Assembly: GCF_029027965.1 (NCBI RefSeq)
Contig: NZ_CP119082.1
Span: forward strand, 1,468,001 to 1,532,000
Length of the DNA stretch: 64,000 nucleotides
DNA from: Paracoccus sp. S3-43
GTDB taxonomy: Bacteria > Pseudomonadota > Alphaproteobacteria > Rhodobacterales > Rhodobacteraceae
Direction: 5' to 3'
In this document: positions 55,924 to 64,000 of the stretch, piece after piece
Layout of the letters: the number at the start of each line of letters is the position of its first letter
Numbering within the stretch: the first letter of the stretch is position 1
The notes under the pieces: model-generated
The model's database searches: none
Told to the model about the DNA's origin: nothing
The model's input: only the letters and a program-made list of their open reading frames with translations
Program-made: the position numbers and the translations under genes

Positions 55924-58065
55924 CTAGCTGGCTGAATACACCGTCCTGCGCGGACCGGTGGGAAGTTCCTCGATCCCGCCGCCATGCACCAGCAGGCGGC
56001 GCGTTGCGCGTTCGATCAGGGCCGGGCGATGGGCAATCACGATGCGGGTGATCGGCAGTTCGGCGATCAGATCGGCGATGGCGCGTTCTGTCTGTTCGTC
56101 CAGATTCGCCGTCCCCTCGTCCAGAAACAACAGGCGCGGCTGGCGGTACAGCGCGCGGGCCAGCAACACCCGCTGGCGCTGGCCGCCCGACAGCGCCGAT
56201 CCCATGTCGCCCACCAGCGACAGGTATTGCATCGGCATCCGGGTGATGTCGTTGTGGATCTGCGCGGCCGCGGCTGCGGCGACCACGCGCTCCATCTCCA
56301 TGTCCGGGTCGAAGAAGGCGATGTTGTCCGCGATCGAGCCCGACAGAAGCTGGTCGTCCTGCGCGACCACACCGACCTGCCCGCGCCATGCGCGCCACAG
56401 CTCGGGCGAGGCCGGCTGGCCGTCCAGCAGGATCTGGCCGTTTTCCGGCGCGTTCAACCCCAGAAGCAGCTTGGCCAGCGTGGTCTTGCCCCCGCCCGAG
56501 GGGCCGGTGACCGCCAGGAAGTCGCCCGGCGCGATCTCCAGCGACACGTCGTCCAGCACCAGCGGGCTGGCATTGCCATAGCGGAAGCTGACGCCGCGCA
56601 CCGAAATGCCGCCCTGCACGTCGATCATGCGCGGGGGCGCGTCGTTGGTTTCGCTGATGTCGGCCTCGGCGGTCACGATGTCGGACAGGCGTTCCAGATG
56701 CAGCTTCAGCAACCGGAACTGCATCACCTCGCCCACCAGCGACAGGGCGCGGTCGCTGAAGGTCTGCCGGAACGACAGGAACGCCATCAGCATCCCGACC
56801 GAGAGCCCGTCCGCGTTCAGGATCATCCTGGCGCCCAGATAGATCACCAGCACGGTCTGGATCCCGATGACGGCGGTTTGCAGGAAGCCGAGGCTGATTT
56901 CGTACTTCCCCACCCTGACCGAACTGTTGATGACCGAGGCATAGCGGTTGCGCCATTTCCCCTCGCGGTCGGTTTCGCCCCCCATCAGTCGGATCGTGGG
57001 CATGGCGCGCACGGTCTCGATCAGATGGGATTGCTCGGACGCCATGGCGACGATGTTTTCCTCGGTCGAGGACCGGGTGAAGGGGTAAAAGGCAAAGCCC
57101 AGACCCAGCACGATCAGCAGCGAGCCGACGACGACCGCCCCCAGAAGTGGCGAGTAAAGAAACAGGATGAAGGCCGCGACCACCGCCATCAACCCGTCCA
57201 CGATGGCCGAGATCATGCCCCGCGTCAGCGCGTCCTGAATGGCCGAGGTGGATTCGATGCGCGACATGATGTCCCCCACATGCCGCTTTTCAAAGAAGGA
57301 AACGGGCAGGCGCAGCAGGTGGCGGACGATGTTGCCGACGATCTGGAAGGACATCATCGACCCCAGCAGCCTCAGCACCCAGTTCCGCAGCGCCTCAAGC
57401 GCCGCATGAAGCACGCTCAGCGCGCCGAACCCCAGGGCCAGCACGGTCAGCAGGTCGCGGTCGGACCGGCTGATCGCCTCGTCCACGACAAGCTGGATGT
57501 GGAAGGGGATGGCGAAGGTCACGACCTGGAACACCAGCGACAGGGCCAGCACCTGAAAGATCGCGGCGCCCATCCCCTGGGTCTTTGACCAGAGGCTGGA
57601 CAGTCTGACCGGCATCCGGGCCTGCGCCTTCTGAAAGTTGCCCATCGGCGACAGTTCCAGAACCACCCCGGTGAAATGGTTGGACAGATCCTCCATCGAC
57701 AGGGTGCGGGCGCCGCGCGCCGGATCGTGAATCACCGCCTTGTGGCGGCTGATCGACTTCAGCACCACGAAATGGTTCAGATCCCAGTGCAGGATCGCCG
57801 GCAGCTTGACCTGCCCCAGCGACTGTATCCCGACCCTCAGCGCGCGGGGCGCCAGCGACAGCTGTTCCGCCAGCTGCATCAGGTTGCGCAGCGTGGCCCC
57901 GGTGAGCGACAGGGAAAATCGCTGCCGCAACCCGTTCAGGTCGATGTCATGGCCGTGATAGCGGCCGATCATCGTCATGCAGGCCAGGCCGCATTCGGCG
58001 GCTTCGGCGGCCCGGATCTCGGGCAGGCGGCGATGCCCGGAAAAGTTCAGCTCAGTGATGCTCAT
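55924..58065 (-). CDS. C39-peptidase-containing ABC exporter for double-glycine peptides
   Basis: A 713-residue peptidase-ABC protein. The C39 domain has Cys25 (AAECGLACMTMIGRYHGHDI), His98 (ILHWDLNHFVVLKSI) and Asp114 (VIHDPARGA), so its catalytic triad is complete. A six-helix membrane domain follows to about residue 450. The nucleotide-binding domain carries Walker A (GPSGGGKTT), signature ALSGGQRQR and Walker B (LLFLDEGTANLD). It should remove leaders after a GG-type site and export the cores. It overlaps the HlyD gene by ATGA and is last in the minus-strand peptide operon. Confidence 0.93.
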   Translation of the reverse strand: MSITELNFSGHRRLPEIRAAEAAECGLACMTMIGRYHGHDIDLNGLRQRFSLSLTGATLRNLMQLAEQLSLAPRALRVGIQSLGQVKLPAILHWDLNHFVVLKSISRHKAVIHDPARGARTLSMEDLSNHFTGVVLELSPMGNFQKAQARMPVRLSSLWSKTQGMGAAIFQVLALSLVFQVVTFAIPFHIQLVVDEAISRSDRDLLTVLALGFGALSVLHAALEALRNWVLRLLGSMMSFQIVGNIVRHLLRLPVSFFEKRHVGDIMSRIESTSAIQDALTRGMISAIVDGLMAVVAAFILFLYSPLLGAVVVGSLLIVLGLGFAFYPFTRSSTEENIVAMASEQSHLIETVRAMPTIRLMGGETDREGKWRNRYASVINSSVRVGKYEISLGFLQTAVIGIQTVLVIYLGARMILNADGLSVGMLMAFLSFRQTFSDRALSLVGEVMQFRLLKLHLERLSDIVTAEADISETNDAPPRMIDVQGGISVRGVSFRYGNASPLVLDDVSLEIAPGDFLAVTGPSGGGKTTLAKLLLGLNAPENGQILLDGQPASPELWRAWRGQVGVVAQDDQLLSGSIADNIAFFDPDMEMERVVAAAAAAQIHNDITRMPMQYLSLVGDMGSALSGGQRQRVLLARALYRQPRLLFLDEGTANLDEQTERAIADLIAELPITRIVIAHRPALIERATRRLLVHGGGIEELPTGPRRTVYSAS

Positions 58066-59339
58066 CCCAGGCGCCCCACGGCATAGATCGGATCGAGAAG
58101 CCATTCGACCAGCGTCCGCCGGTCGATGACGATCCCGGCGGTCAGAAGCATGCCGGGCTGGATCTGGATGCCTTGGCCGTAAGCCCGGATCTGGTCGCTT
58201 TCCATCTGGACCTTGACGCGGAACACCGGCTCGGAAATGTCCAGGCCGGGAATGGCGACCTCGGCCGGGGCAAGGACAGTGCGCGACACGCTGTGCACCA
58301 CGCCGGGGGCCGTGCCGAATTTCTGATAGGGAAAGGCCTGGTACATCAGTTGCACCTCCTGCCCCTTCTGGATGAACCCGGCGGAGCGCGAAGGGACGTA
58401 AAGCTCGGCCTGCAACGTGGATCCCTCGGGCGTGACGACGGCCACGACGGATTGCGGGGCGACGGTCTGGCCGCGCGATACCGGCACGGCGACGACGCGC
58501 CCCGCCACGGTGGCGCCCGCGTGATAGACGTTCTGGGTCGCCATTTCGGTGCCTTGCTGGGCAAGCTGCGCCTGGCTGGCGCTGGCGGCGGCCTCGGCCG
58601 CGCGGATCGAGATCGGCAGGCTGCGCAACTGGGCGTCAATGTCGCTGATCTGGCGTTCTATCGACATCACGCTGCTGCGGACGTTCGACAGTTCCTGCTG
58701 GGCGGACAGCACGCTCATCTCGCTTTCCTCGACGCTCTTGGTGCTGGCAAAGCCGCGACCGGCGACGGTGCGGACCCGTTCGGCGTTTGACTGCACCAGT
58801 TGAAGATGGCGAGTCATCGTCTCGATACGGCTGCGGCCCTGCTCCAGTTCGCGCAGCAGAGCGGCGCGTTGCGTTTCCAGGCTGGCTTCCTCGGCCAGCA
58901 GCTTTTCGCGCTCGGCTTCAGCCTGGGCGCGGACGGCCTCGATCTGGGCCGACAGCTGAAGCTGAAGCGCCTGCCCGGCGCTGCCGTCCTCAAGATCGGC
59001 GGACAGACGCAACTGCGCCAGCGACTGCCCGACCCGCACCTCGTCGCCCTCGGATACCGACAGCGTCTGGATCACCCCGCCCTGAGGCGCGGTCACGCGG
59101 ATCAGCCCGCCTTCGGGCACGACCCATCCGACGACGGTCTCGATGCGGGCATAGCTTGCCGTGGCGGCAAAGATGACCGCGCCGCAGACGACAACGGTCG
59201 CCAGCACGATCAGCACCCGCATCCGCATGGAGAGCGACACAAGAACCTCTCCGTCGAGGGAGCGGGACTGATAGGCGACGGCCTGCTTGCGAAACAGCGG
59301 AACGGGATCGGGAGACAGCGGGGCGTCCTTATCGCTCAT
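58062..59339 (-). CDS. HlyD-family membrane-fusion protein
   Basis: A 425-residue adaptor. After a cytoplasmic start it has one membrane helix (MRVLIVLATVVVCGAVIFAA), a lipoyl/barrel-sandwich half (VTAPQGGVIQTLSVSEGDEV), a long coiled-coil hairpin (about residues 110-265), and the second half plus beta-barrel (VAGRVVAVPVSRGQTVAPQS). This is the periplasmic partner linking the C39 ABC exporter to an outer-membrane channel such as TolC; no channel gene is nearby. It lies upstream of and overlaps the exporter gene. Confidence 0.92.
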   Translation of the reverse strand: MSDKDAPLSPDPVPLFRKQAVAYQSRSLDGEVLVSLSMRMRVLIVLATVVVCGAVIFAATASYARIETVVGWVVPEGGLIRVTAPQGGVIQTLSVSEGDEVRVGQSLAQLRLSADLEDGSAGQALQLQLSAQIEAVRAQAEAEREKLLAEEASLETQRAALLRELEQGRSRIETMTRHLQLVQSNAERVRTVAGRGFASTKSVEESEMSVLSAQQELSNVRSSVMSIERQISDIDAQLRSLPISIRAAEAAASASQAQLAQQGTEMATQNVYHAGATVAGRVVAVPVSRGQTVAPQSVVAVVTPEGSTLQAELYVPSRSAGFIQKGQEVQLMYQAFPYQKFGTAPGVVHSVSRTVLAPAEVAIPGLDISEPVFRVKVQMESDQIRAYGQGIQIQPGMLLTAGIVIDRRTLVEWLLDPIYAVGRLG

Positions 59340-59431: not shown

Positions 59432-59590
59432 TTATTTTTGGGCCAGGTCACGACCGACCTGATAGCCCAAGGCAGCGGAAGCCACACCCAGAGCCAGCAG
59501 CGGGATCAGCGGGAAGGCGCCACCGGCGATGGCGTCGATGTCCTGGTCGTTCAGTTCGAAGGACTGCAGTTCGTTTTCAAGAGCGTTCAT
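59432..59590 (-). CDS. Double-glycine leader peptide, bacteriocin-like (52 residues)
   Basis: A 52-residue precursor. The leader is MNALENELQSFELNDQDIDA then IAGG, with a GG processing site at residues 23-24. The mature part AFPLIPLLALGVASAALGYQ continues with VGRDLAQK and is a hydrophobic helix with Gly/Ala small residues. It resembles class IIb bacteriocins of the lactobin A/cerein 7B type. The ATG follows AAGGATC. It is the last peptide gene before hlyD and the C39 exporter, which should process and export it. Confidence 0.75.
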   Translation of the reverse strand: MNALENELQSFELNDQDIDAIAGGAFPLIPLLALGVASAALGYQVGRDLAQK

Positions 59591-59615
59591 TTCTTGATCC
59601 TTTCAGAGATTGGTT

Positions 59616-59717
59616 TCAGCGAGCGGCCAGATCCGATCCGATCCCGTAGCCCAAGACCATCGAAAGCACCGCCAGAACAGCGAGCCAGATGATGGTTTCG
59701 GACGAGAGATTGAACAT
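59616..59717 (-). CDS. Leaderless 33-residue membrane peptide, paralogue of the neighbouring bacteriocin
   Basis: A 33-residue peptide: MFNLSSETIIWLAVLAVLSM then VLGYGIGSDLAAR. It has no double-glycine site, yet its end (LGYGIGSDLAAR) is clearly related to that of the 52-residue neighbour (LGYQVGRDLAQK). The ATG follows GCAGGAAAA. It may be an immunity peptide, a leaderless bacteriocin or an unprocessed helper; none is proven. Confidence 0.6.
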   Translation of the reverse strand: MFNLSSETIIWLAVLAVLSMVLGYGIGSDLAAR

Positions 59718-59738
59718 TTTTCCTGCCTTTCGGTTACG

Positions 59739-59924
59739 TCAGCGGTTGACCAGGTAGCCGAGACCGACACCGGCCGCGCCGCCCGAGGCGATCGCGATGG
59801 CGCCCCAGACGATCAGCGGGATGGCGGCACCCGAGACGTCCTCGACATCGGCCGGATTCAGCTCCACCAGCGCGTTCTCACTGGCATCATCGACCAGTTT
59901 CAGTTCGAACTTCTCAGCGAACAT
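59739..59924 (-). CDS. Double-glycine-type leader peptide, bacteriocin-like (61 residues)
   Basis: A 61-residue precursor. The leader MFAEKFELKLVDDASENALV continues ELNPADVEDVSG, with a GA rather than a GG at the likely cleavage site. The mature part AIPLIVWGAIAIASGGAAGV continues GLGYLVNR and is hydrophobic and glycine-rich. The ribosome-binding site is AAGGAAAG. The leader is nearly the same as that of the next gene (53 residues), so these two are duplicates. Exported presumably by the C39 system. Confidence 0.72.
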   Translation of the reverse strand: MFAEKFELKLVDDASENALVELNPADVEDVSGAAIPLIVWGAIAIASGGAAGVGLGYLVNR

Positions 59925-59943
59925 GAGACTTTCCTTCACGGTA

Positions 59944-60105
59944 TCAGGTGTTCTTGGCGACGACGTAGCCGGCCACGAAACCCGCAGCGAAGACGAGCGG
60001 CAGGAAGCCACCCGAAACGTCGTCGACCTCGGCGGCGTTCAGTTCGACCAGGGCGGTTTCGTTCAGGTCATCGACCAGCTTCAGTTCGGTTTTTTCAGCA
60101 AACAT
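59944..60105 (-). CDS. Double-glycine leader peptide, bacteriocin-like (53 residues)
   Basis: A 53-residue precursor, the first gene of the minus-strand operon. The leader MFAEKTELKLVDDLNETALV continues ELNAAEVDDVSGG with a GG site at residues 32-33, and the mature part is FLPLVFAAGFVAGYVVAKNT. The ribosome-binding site CGAGGAGAA is strong. The pattern GGFLPL plus small-residue helix is typical of cerein 7B-like class IIb bacteriocins. The promoter must lie in the region shared with the LuxR gene. Confidence 0.75.
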   Translation of the reverse strand: MFAEKTELKLVDDLNETALVELNAAEVDDVSGGFLPLVFAAGFVAGYVVAKNT

Positions 60106-61019: not shown

Positions 61020-61232
61020 ATGACGACCGACACCAACGATATCCGCCCGCTGGAAACCGCCGAGGTCGATAGCGTCGCCGGCGGCACCCTCCGCCGCCCC
61101 CCGGCGGCCACCACGCTCGCCCTTGGCGAGGAGGACGGAGGCTGGGCGACCACCTTGGCCGTCGGCGAAGAAGACGGCGGTGACCGGCGCCTGCTGCTGG
61201 ACGCAGGATTCCATCTGCGCCAGGGCGCGTGA
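61020..61232 (+). CDS. Graspetide (omega-ester peptide) precursor, plesiocin-like with two TTxxxxEE repeats
   Basis: A 70-residue precursor. Leader residues 1-22 end in a double glycine (PLETAEVDSVAGG). The core has two near-identical 13-residue units: TTLALGEED at 31-39 and TTLAVGEED at 44-52. TTxxxxEE is the core motif of plesiocin-type (group 2) graspetides, where the two Thr and two Glu are joined by side-chain esters into a nested double ring. The tail is DRRLLLDAGFHLRQGA. The ribosome-binding site GAGGAT precedes ATG. An ATP-grasp ligase gene follows 57 bases later. The leader resembles those of the minus-strand peptides, so the C39 exporter could process it. Confidence 0.85.
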   Translation: MTTDTNDIRPLETAEVDSVAGGTLRRPPAATTLALGEEDGGWATTLAVGEEDGGDRRLLLDAGFHLRQGA

Positions 61233-61288
61233 ACCCACCGGGCCGGGGCAGGCCCCCGGCCCGGCGTCCCAAAGAAAAGGAATCCCGG

Positions 61289-62137
61289 ATGATCTTGGTG
61301 GCGGGCGGACAGGGGGATCCCAGCATGGCGGTCCTTGTGGACAGGATGGCGCGGCGAGGGACCGGACATCTCAACCTGCTGCTGGGGTCGGACCGGGATT
61401 TCGACCTGCGGATCGACCTGCAATCGAACAGCCTGTCGATCGACGGACGGGTGATCCGGCCCGGCGGGTGCTTCATCCGCCATGACGTGTTCCTGTACGA
61501 TACGCCGGATCCGGCGGCGGCCCATTCCCGCGCGCTGAACTGGTATCAGGCGATTCGCGGCTGGTGCGCGGCGCAGCCCGGCATCCGCCTGTTCAACCGC
61601 CAGTCCATCATGCGCGAAAACAACAAGATCGAGAACCTGCTGGCGGCCCGGCAGATCGGCCTTGCGGTGCCCCATACCCTTGTGACCAATGATTTTTCCG
61701 ACCTGCGCCATGACGATTCGCTGATCCAGAAGCCGGTCGCGGGTGGCGAATACACCGCGCTGTTGCGCGACCTGCCGGCGGATTCCCGCTGCCCTCGATT
61801 CGTCCAGCCTCGCCTGAACCGGCCAGAAATGCGGGTCTATCGCATCGGCGACGCCGTCATGGGGTTCCGGCTGACCTCGCCCGATCTCGATTATCGCCTG
61901 GCGCAGACGGCCACGCTGACCACGGCGCCGGTCCCCGCCGATCTGGCCGACCTGCTGGTGCAATTGTGCGACCGGCTGAACCTCGATTTCGCGGCGGCCG
62001 ATTTCATGACCGGTGATTCGGGAGAGCCGCTGTTTCTGGAACTGAACTCGCAGCCGATGTTCGCGGCCTTCGACCGCACGGCCGAAGGCCGGCTGTCCGA
62101 CGCGATCATCGACTATCTGGAACAACGCGGCGCCTGA
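61289..62137 (+). CDS. ATP-grasp ligase of the graspetide (MvdC/MvdD/PsnB) class
   Basis: A 282-residue ATP-grasp enzyme. Motifs in order: NKIENLLAARQIGLAVPHTL followed by VTND, then IQKPVAGGEYTALL, MRVYRIGDAVMGFRL, and the metal-binding end AADFMTGDSGEPLFLELNSQ followed by PMFAAFD. KP-x-x-GGEYT and ELNSQPMFAAFD are characteristic of the peptide-macrocyclising ligases of graspetide clusters, which activate Glu/Asp side chains as acyl phosphates for attack by Thr or Lys. Its substrate is surely the adjacent precursor. The ATG follows AAAGGAATCC. It is the last gene of the plus-strand unit. Confidence 0.87.
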   Translation: MILVAGGQGDPSMAVLVDRMARRGTGHLNLLLGSDRDFDLRIDLQSNSLSIDGRVIRPGGCFIRHDVFLYDTPDPAAAHSRALNWYQAIRGWCAAQPGIRLFNRQSIMRENNKIENLLAARQIGLAVPHTLVTNDFSDLRHDDSLIQKPVAGGEYTALLRDLPADSRCPRFVQPRLNRPEMRVYRIGDAVMGFRLTSPDLDYRLAQTATLTTAPVPADLADLLVQLCDRLNLDFAAADFMTGDSGEPLFLELNSQPMFAAFDRTAEGRLSDAIIDYLEQRGA

Positions 62138-62524: not shown

Positions 62525-63235
62525 ATAGAGCGTGTTGCGTCTAATCGGTTTCATGTCCTGCGGCGATGAAGAAGTTGTAGCCTTCGTCCTCGGTGAAGAG
62601 GCCGCAGACATGGCCGACAGCACGCCAGAGGTCTTCGTAGGTCCGTGCCGCTGCCCTGCGAATCAGGGCCTTCAGTTTGGCGAAGGCCCTTTCGATCGGG
62701 TTCAGATGGGGCTGCCGGGCGGCAGGAAGAGAAACCACGCGCCAACGGCCTTCATGGCCCCGGCCGCCTTGGGGCTTTTGTGGGATGACAGATTGTCGAG
62801 GATGATCACGTCGCCGGGCAGCAAGGTCGGGGTCAGTTGGGTCTCGACATAAAGCTCGAACAACGCGCGGCTCGACGCGCCCTCGATCTCCCAGGGCGCG
62901 TCGAGCCGGTCTTGGCGTAGGGCGGCGATGAAGGTCTGGGTAGTCCAGTGGCCGAAGGGCGCAGGGCCGATCAGACGCGCATCTCTGGGGGACCATCCCG
63001 TGGTCTTGGCCATGTTCGTCTTCAGCGAGGTCTCGTCGATGAAACCGATGCGTGGCGACAGGTTGCGCATGAAGGGCTGACGTCGTGTGATCCAGATATG
63101 GCGCGCCCGCCGGACCTCAGGCCGCTTTTGTTCGAGAGCTTGCAGGTCTTTTTTTATGTGTCAGCCTGAGACCGCGCAGGAATCGCCAGACCGAGACGCG
63201 GTGGATGGCGATGCCGTGGTGAGGCCCTCTTCTCG
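62525..63235 (-). mobile_element. IS630-family fragment, 3' end with DDE domain
   Basis: The minus-strand sequence carries the 3' terminus TAGAGCGTGTTGCG (TA at 62525-62526), related to the terminus of the fragment at 55.9 kb. It holds most of the transposase catalytic part but lacks the 5' end, where an integrase fragment begins near 63235. The conserved terminus faces the peptide cluster, as in the other copy, and both copies point the same way. Confidence 0.8.
62541..63220 (-). pseudogene. IS630 transposase catalytic part, frameshifted
   Basis: The readable pieces are HGIAIHRVSVWRFLRGLRLT up to an A7 run; ALEQKRPEVRRARHIWITRR then SPRIGFIDETSLKTNMAKTT with the first Asp; GDVIILDNLSSHKSPKAAGA with the second Asp; and, in another frame, HLNPIERAFAKLKALIRRAA with the Glu. 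So D, D and E are all present but split by a shift at the A7 run (possibly programmed) and another near 62700 (PPGSP, where PPYSPDLNPIE is usual). The N-terminal domain is missing. Confidence 0.8.
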
Positions 63236-63556
63236 CATCTCGCGAGGCGATTTCAGCGGATGCCAGAAAAAGAACAATGGGCTCGGCCCCTTTCTCATTG
63301 TCTGCCTGGCCGCCTCATACCGGGCGGCCTGCTCAATCATAGCGCGTGCGGCTTTCGGATCCAGCCGCGCTTCGGCGATGGCCTCGAAAGCGGACACGGA
63401 CGTCGCAGTGGCCGCCGCCGCTATGGCCCGGGCTCCGGTGGGCTGGTCCGTGTTGAGAGGGATTTGGATGGTGATTCCGCGGACCTCGCGCCGCCAAGAG
63501 TAGCGGCGGCCGCGGCGGATGAGGAATGGAGAAAGTCCCAAGATGTCGTGCTCCCG
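63235..63556 (-). pseudogene. Tyrosine-recombinase (integrase) N-terminal fragment
   Basis: The frame reads FLIRRGRRYSWRREVRGITI, QIPLNTDQPTGARAIAAAAT and FEAIAEARLDPKAARAMIEQ, which resembles the N-terminal SAM-like region of alphaproteobacterial phage-type integrases. The catalytic domain is not present; IS630 sequence follows. It indicates that an integrative element once lay here, fitting the AlpA and DUF2493 relics on the other side of the cluster. Confidence 0.5.
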
Positions 63557-63792
63557 GCAGATCGGGGACGCGTCAGGTTCTGGACAATCTGTCCCTGGCT
63601 CCGAAAAGAGCCGCGTAAGTCCTTGAGAAGATTGACTTGGCTGGGGCGGTAGGATCCCCAGCGAAATCCGTAACATCTTGGCACTTCAGTAACTTCCGGC
63701 GCAGAAGACAAAGATTGCCGCGCTTTGGATGACTGTATCATTGCAGATAATTTCAGTCGCAACAACAAACGATGATCAGGAGTTTCGTCTAG

Positions 63793-64000
63793 ATGAACGA
63801 TCTTCCTAACCACCGACGAGCAGATGACGCGGCTGCGCCCCTATTTTCCGAAATCAAACGGCGGTCCGCAGGTAGATGACCGCCGTGTGCTGAGCGGCAT
63901 AATCTTTATCAATCTCAATTGCTTGCAGCGCCGCGGGCGTATGGCCTGCCAGGATGCTCCACACTCACTGGAAACGAAGGAGCTATCTGGGGGTCTTTGC
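63793..64000 (+). pseudogene. IS5-family transposase, degraded N-terminal fragment reaching the window edge
   Basis: It starts MNDLP, then after a one-base shift reads LTTDEQMTRLRPYFPKSNGG then VDDRRVLSGIIFINLN, the standard N-terminus of another IS5-type transposase. Later residues (LQRRGRMACQDAPHS) diverge from the expected RWRDAP, so the copy is decayed. It runs off the right end of the window and differs from the complete element at 48.3-49.2 kb. Confidence 0.65.

What the first reader, a model, noticed from the sequence alone, without database searches (positions are those of the whole stretch)
61020..62137. Two-gene graspetide (plesiocin-type) biosynthetic unit in a Rhodobacterales-like genome
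Seen: a 70-residue gene with a double-glycine leader and two TTLAxGEED units, followed by an ATP-grasp gene with KP-x-x-GGEYT and ELNSQPMFAAFD. Known: TTxxxxEE cores with MvdC/PsnB-type ligases define group 2 graspetides, whose Thr and Glu side chains are joined by esters. Inference: this unit makes a small two-domain omega-ester peptide; the two-repeat core and short leader differ from plesiocin itself, which has four repeats.
Basis: partly seen in the sequence, partly recalled or inferred. Interest (0 to 1): 0.88.

Follow-up and report, generated by a model that had tools for sequence, protein, structure and literature searches.

The report
Plesiocin-like ester-ringed peptide gene pair
Two neighbouring genes very probably make and cross-link a small secreted peptide resembling the protease inhibitor plesiocin, and comparison with relatives hints that the cross-linking enzyme may not need the usual leader sequence to find its substrate.

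Summary
In detail: a 70-residue precursor (61020-61232) with a double-glycine leader and two TTLAxGEED units lies 56 bases before a 282-residue ATP-grasp gene (61289-62137). By PDB sequence search and Foldseek the nearest solved enzyme is plesiocin ligase PsnB; RimK is weaker there, though nearly level in VIA-align. In 25 of 27 distinct related loci the gene before the ligase carries TT....EE motifs; the other two carry variants. The graspetide reading is supported.

Ligases 44-50% identical sit beside precursors with no double-glycine leader, and more distant ones beside other N-termini, while the TTxAxGEE core persists.

I infer that the leader mainly serves export and that the ligase reads the core, perhaps with the tail. 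New variant of a known kind; the chemistry (-72 Da) and the target are untested.

The parts
61020..61232 (+). graspetide precursor, 70 aa
61020..61085 (+). double-glycine leader, residues 1-22, predicted C39 cut after VAGG
   Evidence: sequence; alignment A3; resembles leaders of three neighbouring peptides
61110..61133 (+). first core unit TTLALGEE, residues 31-38
61149..61172 (+). second core unit TTLAVGEE, residues 44-51
61197..61214 (+). conserved C-terminal tail LDAGFH, residues 60-65 (L[DE]xxxH)
   Evidence: L60 and H65 invariant, D61 at least 90% in 22 rows
61289..62137 (+). ATP-grasp graspetide ligase, 282 aa
60418..60834 (+). LuxR-type (GerE) regulator, start uncertain (60250 TTG or 60418 GTG); related gene beside the precursor in L002 and L003
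55924..58104 (-). C39-peptidase ABC exporter, inferred to cut the leader and export the peptide
   Evidence: PF03412, PF00664, PF00005; TIGR03796 492 bits, below cut-off 853
58062..59339 (-). HlyD-type membrane fusion partner of the exporter
59432..59590 (-). double-glycine bacteriocin-like peptide 1, probably another exporter substrate
   Evidence: TIGR03949 17.7 bits, below cut-off 21.5
59739..59924 (-). double-glycine bacteriocin-like peptide 2
   Evidence: TIGR03949 15.1 bits, below cut-off
59944..60105 (-). double-glycine bacteriocin-like peptide 3
   Evidence: TIGR03949 24.2 bits, above cut-off 21.5

Best explanation
This is a plesiocin-type graspetide unit. Shown: the precursor, the adjacent ATP-grasp ligase, a C39 exporter with HlyD close by, and the same precursor-ligase pairing in relatives. 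Inferred: the ligase uses ATP to activate the two Glu of each TTxxxxEE unit and the two Thr attack them, giving two nested omega-esters per unit (four in all, -72 Da). The C39 exporter then cuts after VAGG and secretes a 48-residue, two-hairpin peptide that keeps the LDAGFH tail (monoisotopic 5029.576 unmodified, 4957.534 after four water losses). The loops (LALG, LAVG) are like those of the Plesiocystis precursor P0197, so the likeliest activity is inhibition of serine proteases. The leader probably serves export above all; substrate choice probably lies in the core repeats, with a possible contribution of the tail.
For: Anatomy. Ligase nearest to graspetide ligases. TT....EE before the ligase in 25 of 27 distinct related loci, variants in two. 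Exporter: match at E 2.9e-171 or better in 12 of the 13 genomes of loci L002-L014; the 13th (L002) has a HlyD fragment at its contig end. C39 or HlyD within the locus: 10 of 14 (L002-L014 and window) against 0 of 5 leaderless loci. The distant double-glycine locus L025/L040 also has C39 and HlyD. Leaders alike among the window's double-glycine peptides. Loops alike in P0197.
Against: No mass spectrum or assay. No Pfam or NCBIfam model passes its cut-off for either gene. The exporter is on the other strand beside three other peptides, so its use here is inferred; L005, L009 and L012 have none in the locus and L013 only a remnant. Three of the 12 exporter matches contain one in-frame stop. RimK is nearly level in VIA-align.
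Confidence: 0.8

Rival explanations
1. Ordinary leader-dependent graspetide: the ligase binds the N-terminal leader (R-x-L-x-x-x-E) as PsnB and MdnC do, and the same leader is then cut by C39.
For: Leader positions R9, L11, E15, V19, G21 are conserved in 22 rows. The plesiocin leader is itself a double-glycine leader with the motif built in (P0197). Characterised ligases need a leader (PMC7823629 passages; PMC8939145 section 5).
Against: The conserved pattern is also what C39 cleavage alone would ask for. LFIEDL, HPF and PFFARFL motifs are absent. Related ligases serve precursors without any such leader.
Confidence: 0.4
2. C-terminal follower: the ligase recognises the L[DE]xxxH tail, perhaps through Arg109.
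For: L60 and H65 invariant in 22 rows. Halomonas L009 and L012 lost one core unit but kept the tail. Arg109: 13 of 14 tailed loci and 20 of 21 tailed ligases paired by equal contig length, against 0 of 5 leaderless loci. N- and C-terminal motifs never co-occur in 132 precursors (54 N, 64 C, 0 both, 14 neither). An engineered follower works for ThfB (PMC13003496).
Against: The tail may instead belong to the product's activity. Leaderless relatives have neither leader nor tail. The motif table is biased and confounded by descent. Arg109 also occurs in some distant ligases (3 of 7).
Confidence: 0.3
3. The ATP-grasp enzyme is a RimK- or other amino-acid ligase that by chance follows a repeat peptide.
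For: RimK is nearly level in VIA-align and scores weakly in NCBIfam.
Against: Conserved pairing with TT....EE genes in 25 of 27 loci; better sequence and Foldseek scores for graspetide ligases.
Confidence: 0.04

Closest known systems
Plesiocin of Plesiocystis pacifica (PsnA/PsnB; group 2 graspetides)
   Same: TTxAxGEE units with like loops, double-glycine site, one ATP-grasp ligase; PsnB is the best PDB sequence and Foldseek match
   Different: Plesiocystis precursor P0197 (PPSIR1_14310; that it is a plesiocin precursor is recalled) has four units, a DLFIEDLG leader and ends at the last EE; here two units, no LFIEDL, an LDxxxH tail, and a shorter ligase (282 against 334 residues)
Group 2 graspetide clusters with NHLM-type peptidase transporter (survey PMC13097080, sections 5 and 7 read)
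   Same: peptidase exporter near a group 2 precursor and ligase
   Different: the exporter here is below the TIGR03796 cut-off, on the other strand, and adjoins three bacteriocin-like peptides
Gra-5, a group 2 graspetide lacking one set of donor and acceptor residues (PMC9576775, passages)
   Same: group 2 core with fewer linkages than plesiocin
   Different: its sequence was not seen here, so leader and tail could not be compared
Fuscimiditide with repositioned leader (PMC13003496, abstract and introduction)
   Same: shows that a C-terminal recognition element can direct a graspetide synthetase
   Different: engineered, another ligase (ThfB) and core; here a natural tail of untested role

Membership tests
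graspetide (ATP-grasp RiPP) | precursor with donor (Thr/Ser/Lys) and acceptor (Asp/Glu) residues beside an ATP-grasp ligase | tested here: met
   two TTxxxxEE units, ligase 56 bases downstream; same pairing in relatives
graspetide (ATP-grasp RiPP) | ligase closer to peptide maturases than to RimK | tested here: met
   under curated cut-offs, RimK nearly tied in VIA-align, no sound tree with RimK
graspetide (ATP-grasp RiPP) | side-chain esters or amides in the product | not testable with these tools
   needs mass spectrometry
group 2 / plesiocin type | TTxxxxEE core, usually repeated | tested here: met
   two units; P0197 has four
group 2 / plesiocin type | ligase inside the published group 2 cluster of the similarity network | not tested
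   supplementary data were not read
plesiocin lineage within group 2 | LFIEDL-type leader | tested here: not met
   absent from the window precursor; 35 of 132 sampled precursors have it. So it is not filed as a plesiocin proper
microviridin | PFFARFL leader motif and TxKxPSD-type core | tested here: not met
   neither is in the precursor; motifs from PMC7823629 passages

The most novel reading that the evidence does not exclude
In this ligase clade the TTxAxGEE unit is a self-sufficient, portable cross-linking tag. The ligase recognises the core (helped in one subgroup by a C-terminal L[DE]xxxH follower), and evolution swaps the N-terminal part by destination: double-glycine leader for C39 export, signal- or lipoprotein-like start, Nif11-like leader, an uncharacterised domain, or no leader at all. 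It would be a natural leader-independent graspetide ligase family.
Probability: 0.45. Interest if true: 0.68.

Novelty: new variant of a known kind. Interest (0 to 1): 0.5.

Why it matters
Characterised graspetide ligases are described as guided or activated by an N-terminal leader (PMC8939145, PMC7823629). A clade whose substrates keep the core but exchange or lose the leader would separate recognition from export, give a natural test of leader independence, and offer a short motif for installing ester-locked hairpins in other proteins. The LDxxxH tail is a concrete, mutable candidate recognition element.

Tried and rejected
RimK or another non-peptide ATP-grasp enzyme: less likely, not excluded by fold. 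Mobile origin: viral contigs gave no relative, plasmids one partial 30% match, phages one 25% match (not fetched). Microviridin type: motifs absent. PADLOC and PHROGs were not searched.

Tree with outgroups: the RimK-like row was a wrong-frame ORF and the PsnB and AMdnB rows were fragments on very long branches; discarded. One search, without outgroups, is the tree used; it omits L025 (partial match), L026 (same contig as L010) and L028 (near-copy of L020). The 14 double-glycine ligases are not one clade in the best tree, but one clade is not rejected (AU p 0.335).

The first motif table missed many LFIEDL leaders through a faulty expression; one search corrects it. Its 132 rows are the 30 and 102 new ones from the 120 listed of 972 hits: a sample drawn with tailed precursors. 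The strict tail pattern L[DE]xxxH is in 43 of 132; one search allows L[DEG] and counts 44 (adds P0167). P0141 and P0201 have this kind of leader but no tail; their ends look unlike the rest of the family.

A shortened stretch after KPVAGG (13-17 residues in L002-L014, 20-25 in leaderless loci, 22 in PsnB) first looked like loss of a leader-binding helix. Tailed ligases paired by equal contig length run from 13 to 20 (19 of 21 measurable), so it does not separate the classes; dropped as an argument.

Fisher p 0.011 for exporter against leader type uses counts read by hand and ignores relatedness. Contig-length pairing of proteins is indirect.

Literature: 'graspetide' with 'leaderless' and with 'follower', and 'TTLALGEE', listed no paper that I recognised as describing leaderless or natural follower graspetides; I judged mostly by title and abstract, and subscription papers are not held. 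(graspetide with taxon names) was uninformative. Variation of precursors beside similar ligases is already reported for a Bacteroides branch (PMC8939145 section 6, part 1 of 3 read).

Full report
What is there. The window (G000:C1:1468001-1532000 of a single 3.22-Mb contig; one match to the ligase in that genome) holds a 70-aa ORF at 61020-61232 and a 282-aa ORF at 61289-62137, both + strand. The precursor reads as a 22-residue double-glycine leader, an eight-residue spacer, TTLALGEED, GGWA, TTLAVGEED and a C-terminal stretch with LDAGFH. It is the only one of 989 ORFs in the window with two TT....EE motifs; 40 order-3 Markov shuffles gave none with two.

Relatives. One search gave 17 loci in named genomes (L002-L018). 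Searches added L019-L029; L026 is the same contig as L010 (53,150 bases), leaving 27 distinct loci besides the window. The gene before the ligase has TT....EE units in 25 of 27. L029 has KT....EE-like units on the kind of N-terminal domain seen in L020 (my reading of the DNA); L025 has a double-glycine peptide with one degenerate YTQAIGENGG. The ligase is sporadic: matches in 6 of 394 family, 2 of 385 class, 3 of 398 phylum and 6 of 292 order genomes, the window's own counted each time and G300 found twice (E limits 1e-20 for the first two, 1e-15 for the others).

Substrate classes. (a) L002-L014 (13 loci; Paracoccus, Rhizobium-type, Aureimonas, Halomonas and an unnamed alphaproteobacterium): double-glycine leader, one to three intact units, tail L[DE]xxxH in all 13. 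L005's leader is masked except for VAGG. Halomonas L009 and L012 keep one intact unit and the tail. (b) L015, L017, L027: the first unit starts at residue 5 or 7, so there is no leader; the open frame before the chosen start has room for only 4, 13 and 2 residues. L016 and L018 have 19 and 14 residues before the first unit, rich in Lys and Arg, and a Lys/Arg-rich end; L016 has a PGG just before its first unit. Neither group has the tail. (c) More distant ligases (33-39% identical): L019 lipoprotein-like and L021 signal-like N-termini (by eye), L020, L023, L028 and L029 a shared domain of about 110 residues, L024 a weak Nif11 match under cut-off, L022 cut at its 5' end.

Tree. In one search (26 rows) classes (a) and (b) form a 100/99 clade against (c); the leaderless rows, L016 and L018 included, are a 99/98 clade. 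The five substrate labels need 4 changes, the least possible. So the N-terminal type changed during the history of the ligase while the core stayed. This is the main reason for doubting leader dependence. It contrasts with the statement in PMC8939145 (section 5 read) that leader sequences follow the major ligase branches, and the Phhx(1,2)h leader motif described there is not conserved here.

Exporter. On the other strand lie a C39-peptidase ABC exporter (55924-58104), HlyD (58062-59339) and three double-glycine peptides, one over the TIGR03949 cut-off. Their leaders end as the graspetide leader does. The window's exporter matches at E 2.9e-171 or better in 12 of the 13 genomes of class (a), three of these matches with one in-frame stop; in the 13th (L002) the contig ends in a HlyD fragment beside similar peptides. 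Of the four leaderless genomes searched, one has full-length exporters at about 30% identity (2.6e-94), two have matches without the C39 part, one none at 1e-40. Within loci, C39 or HlyD is present in 10 of 14 of class (a) with the window and 0 of 5 leaderless ones; the Rhizobium-type loci L006-L008 have HlyD, exporter, precursor and ligase in one direction. L005, L009 and L012 have none in the locus, L013 only a remnant. The distant double-glycine locus L025 (wider as L040) has a 38%-identical C39 exporter and HlyD nearby.

Tail and motif exclusivity. In 22 aligned precursors L60 and H65 are invariant and D61 is at least 90%. Among 132 TTxAxGEE precursors, 54 carry an N-terminal motif (35 LFIEDL, 12 HPF-like, 7 Paenibacillus type), 64 a C-terminal one (44 L[DEG]xxxH, 20 [PAT][FL]GxF at the very end), none both, 14 neither. 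The PFGAF/ALGSF ending recalls the microviridin leader motif PFFARFL (PMC7823629 passages). This suggests natural follower recognition in some lineages but is confounded by descent and by the way the sample was drawn. It is a lead for a contact with the tail's acidic residue, no more.

Function. The loops are like those of the Plesiocystis precursor P0197, and plesiocin is called a potent serine protease inhibitor whose potency rises with the number of units (PMC13097080 introduction). A two-unit secreted inhibitor is the most likely product; elastase and chymotrypsin as targets are from recall.

Verdict. The finding is confirmed and its interpretation supported. It is a new variant of a known kind: a plesiocin-like unit with a leader that is not plesiocin's, a conserved tail, and a ligase clade that may be leader-independent.

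Noticed in passing
window 59432-60105 (-): Three small double-glycine peptides, one over the class IIb bacteriocin cut-off (TIGR03949), beside HlyD and the C39 exporter; relatives of at least two of them lie in Paracoccus loci L002, L003 and L010.
   Followed up: partly
window 62541-63676 (-) and 63824-64000 (+): Transposase-like reading frames directly after the ligase, apparently broken (only a weak DDE_3 match, 0.068), and another transposase-like start at the window's end by eye: a mobile neighbourhood.
   Followed up: no
P0134-P0137, P0140, P0144, P0146, P0147, P0149, P0178, P0188, P0218 and eight more: A separate set of 20 TTxAxGEE precursors ends exactly in [PAT][FL]GxF, five of them without a double-glycine site; looks like a leader motif moved to the C-terminus. 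Their ligases were not found.
   Followed up: partly
L020, L023, L028, L029: A domain of about 110 residues (no Pfam match for L020) followed by many TT....EE-like units; in L029 the first Thr is Lys, which could give amides.
   Followed up: partly
L019:944-1396, P0220, P0234: Lipoprotein-like starts (by eye) on proteins with TTxAIGEE units: ester-locked motifs might occur on envelope proteins.
   Followed up: no
L016:8574-8972 and L018:8500-8967: TT....EE repeat proteins with Lys/Arg-rich ends beside the ligase and no C39 exporter in the locus; possibly intracellular.
   Followed up: no
L024:1018-1953: The ligase has an internal run of short repeats (NPDTQNPNT, then LGPNT) just before its KPIAGG strand.
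   Followed up: no
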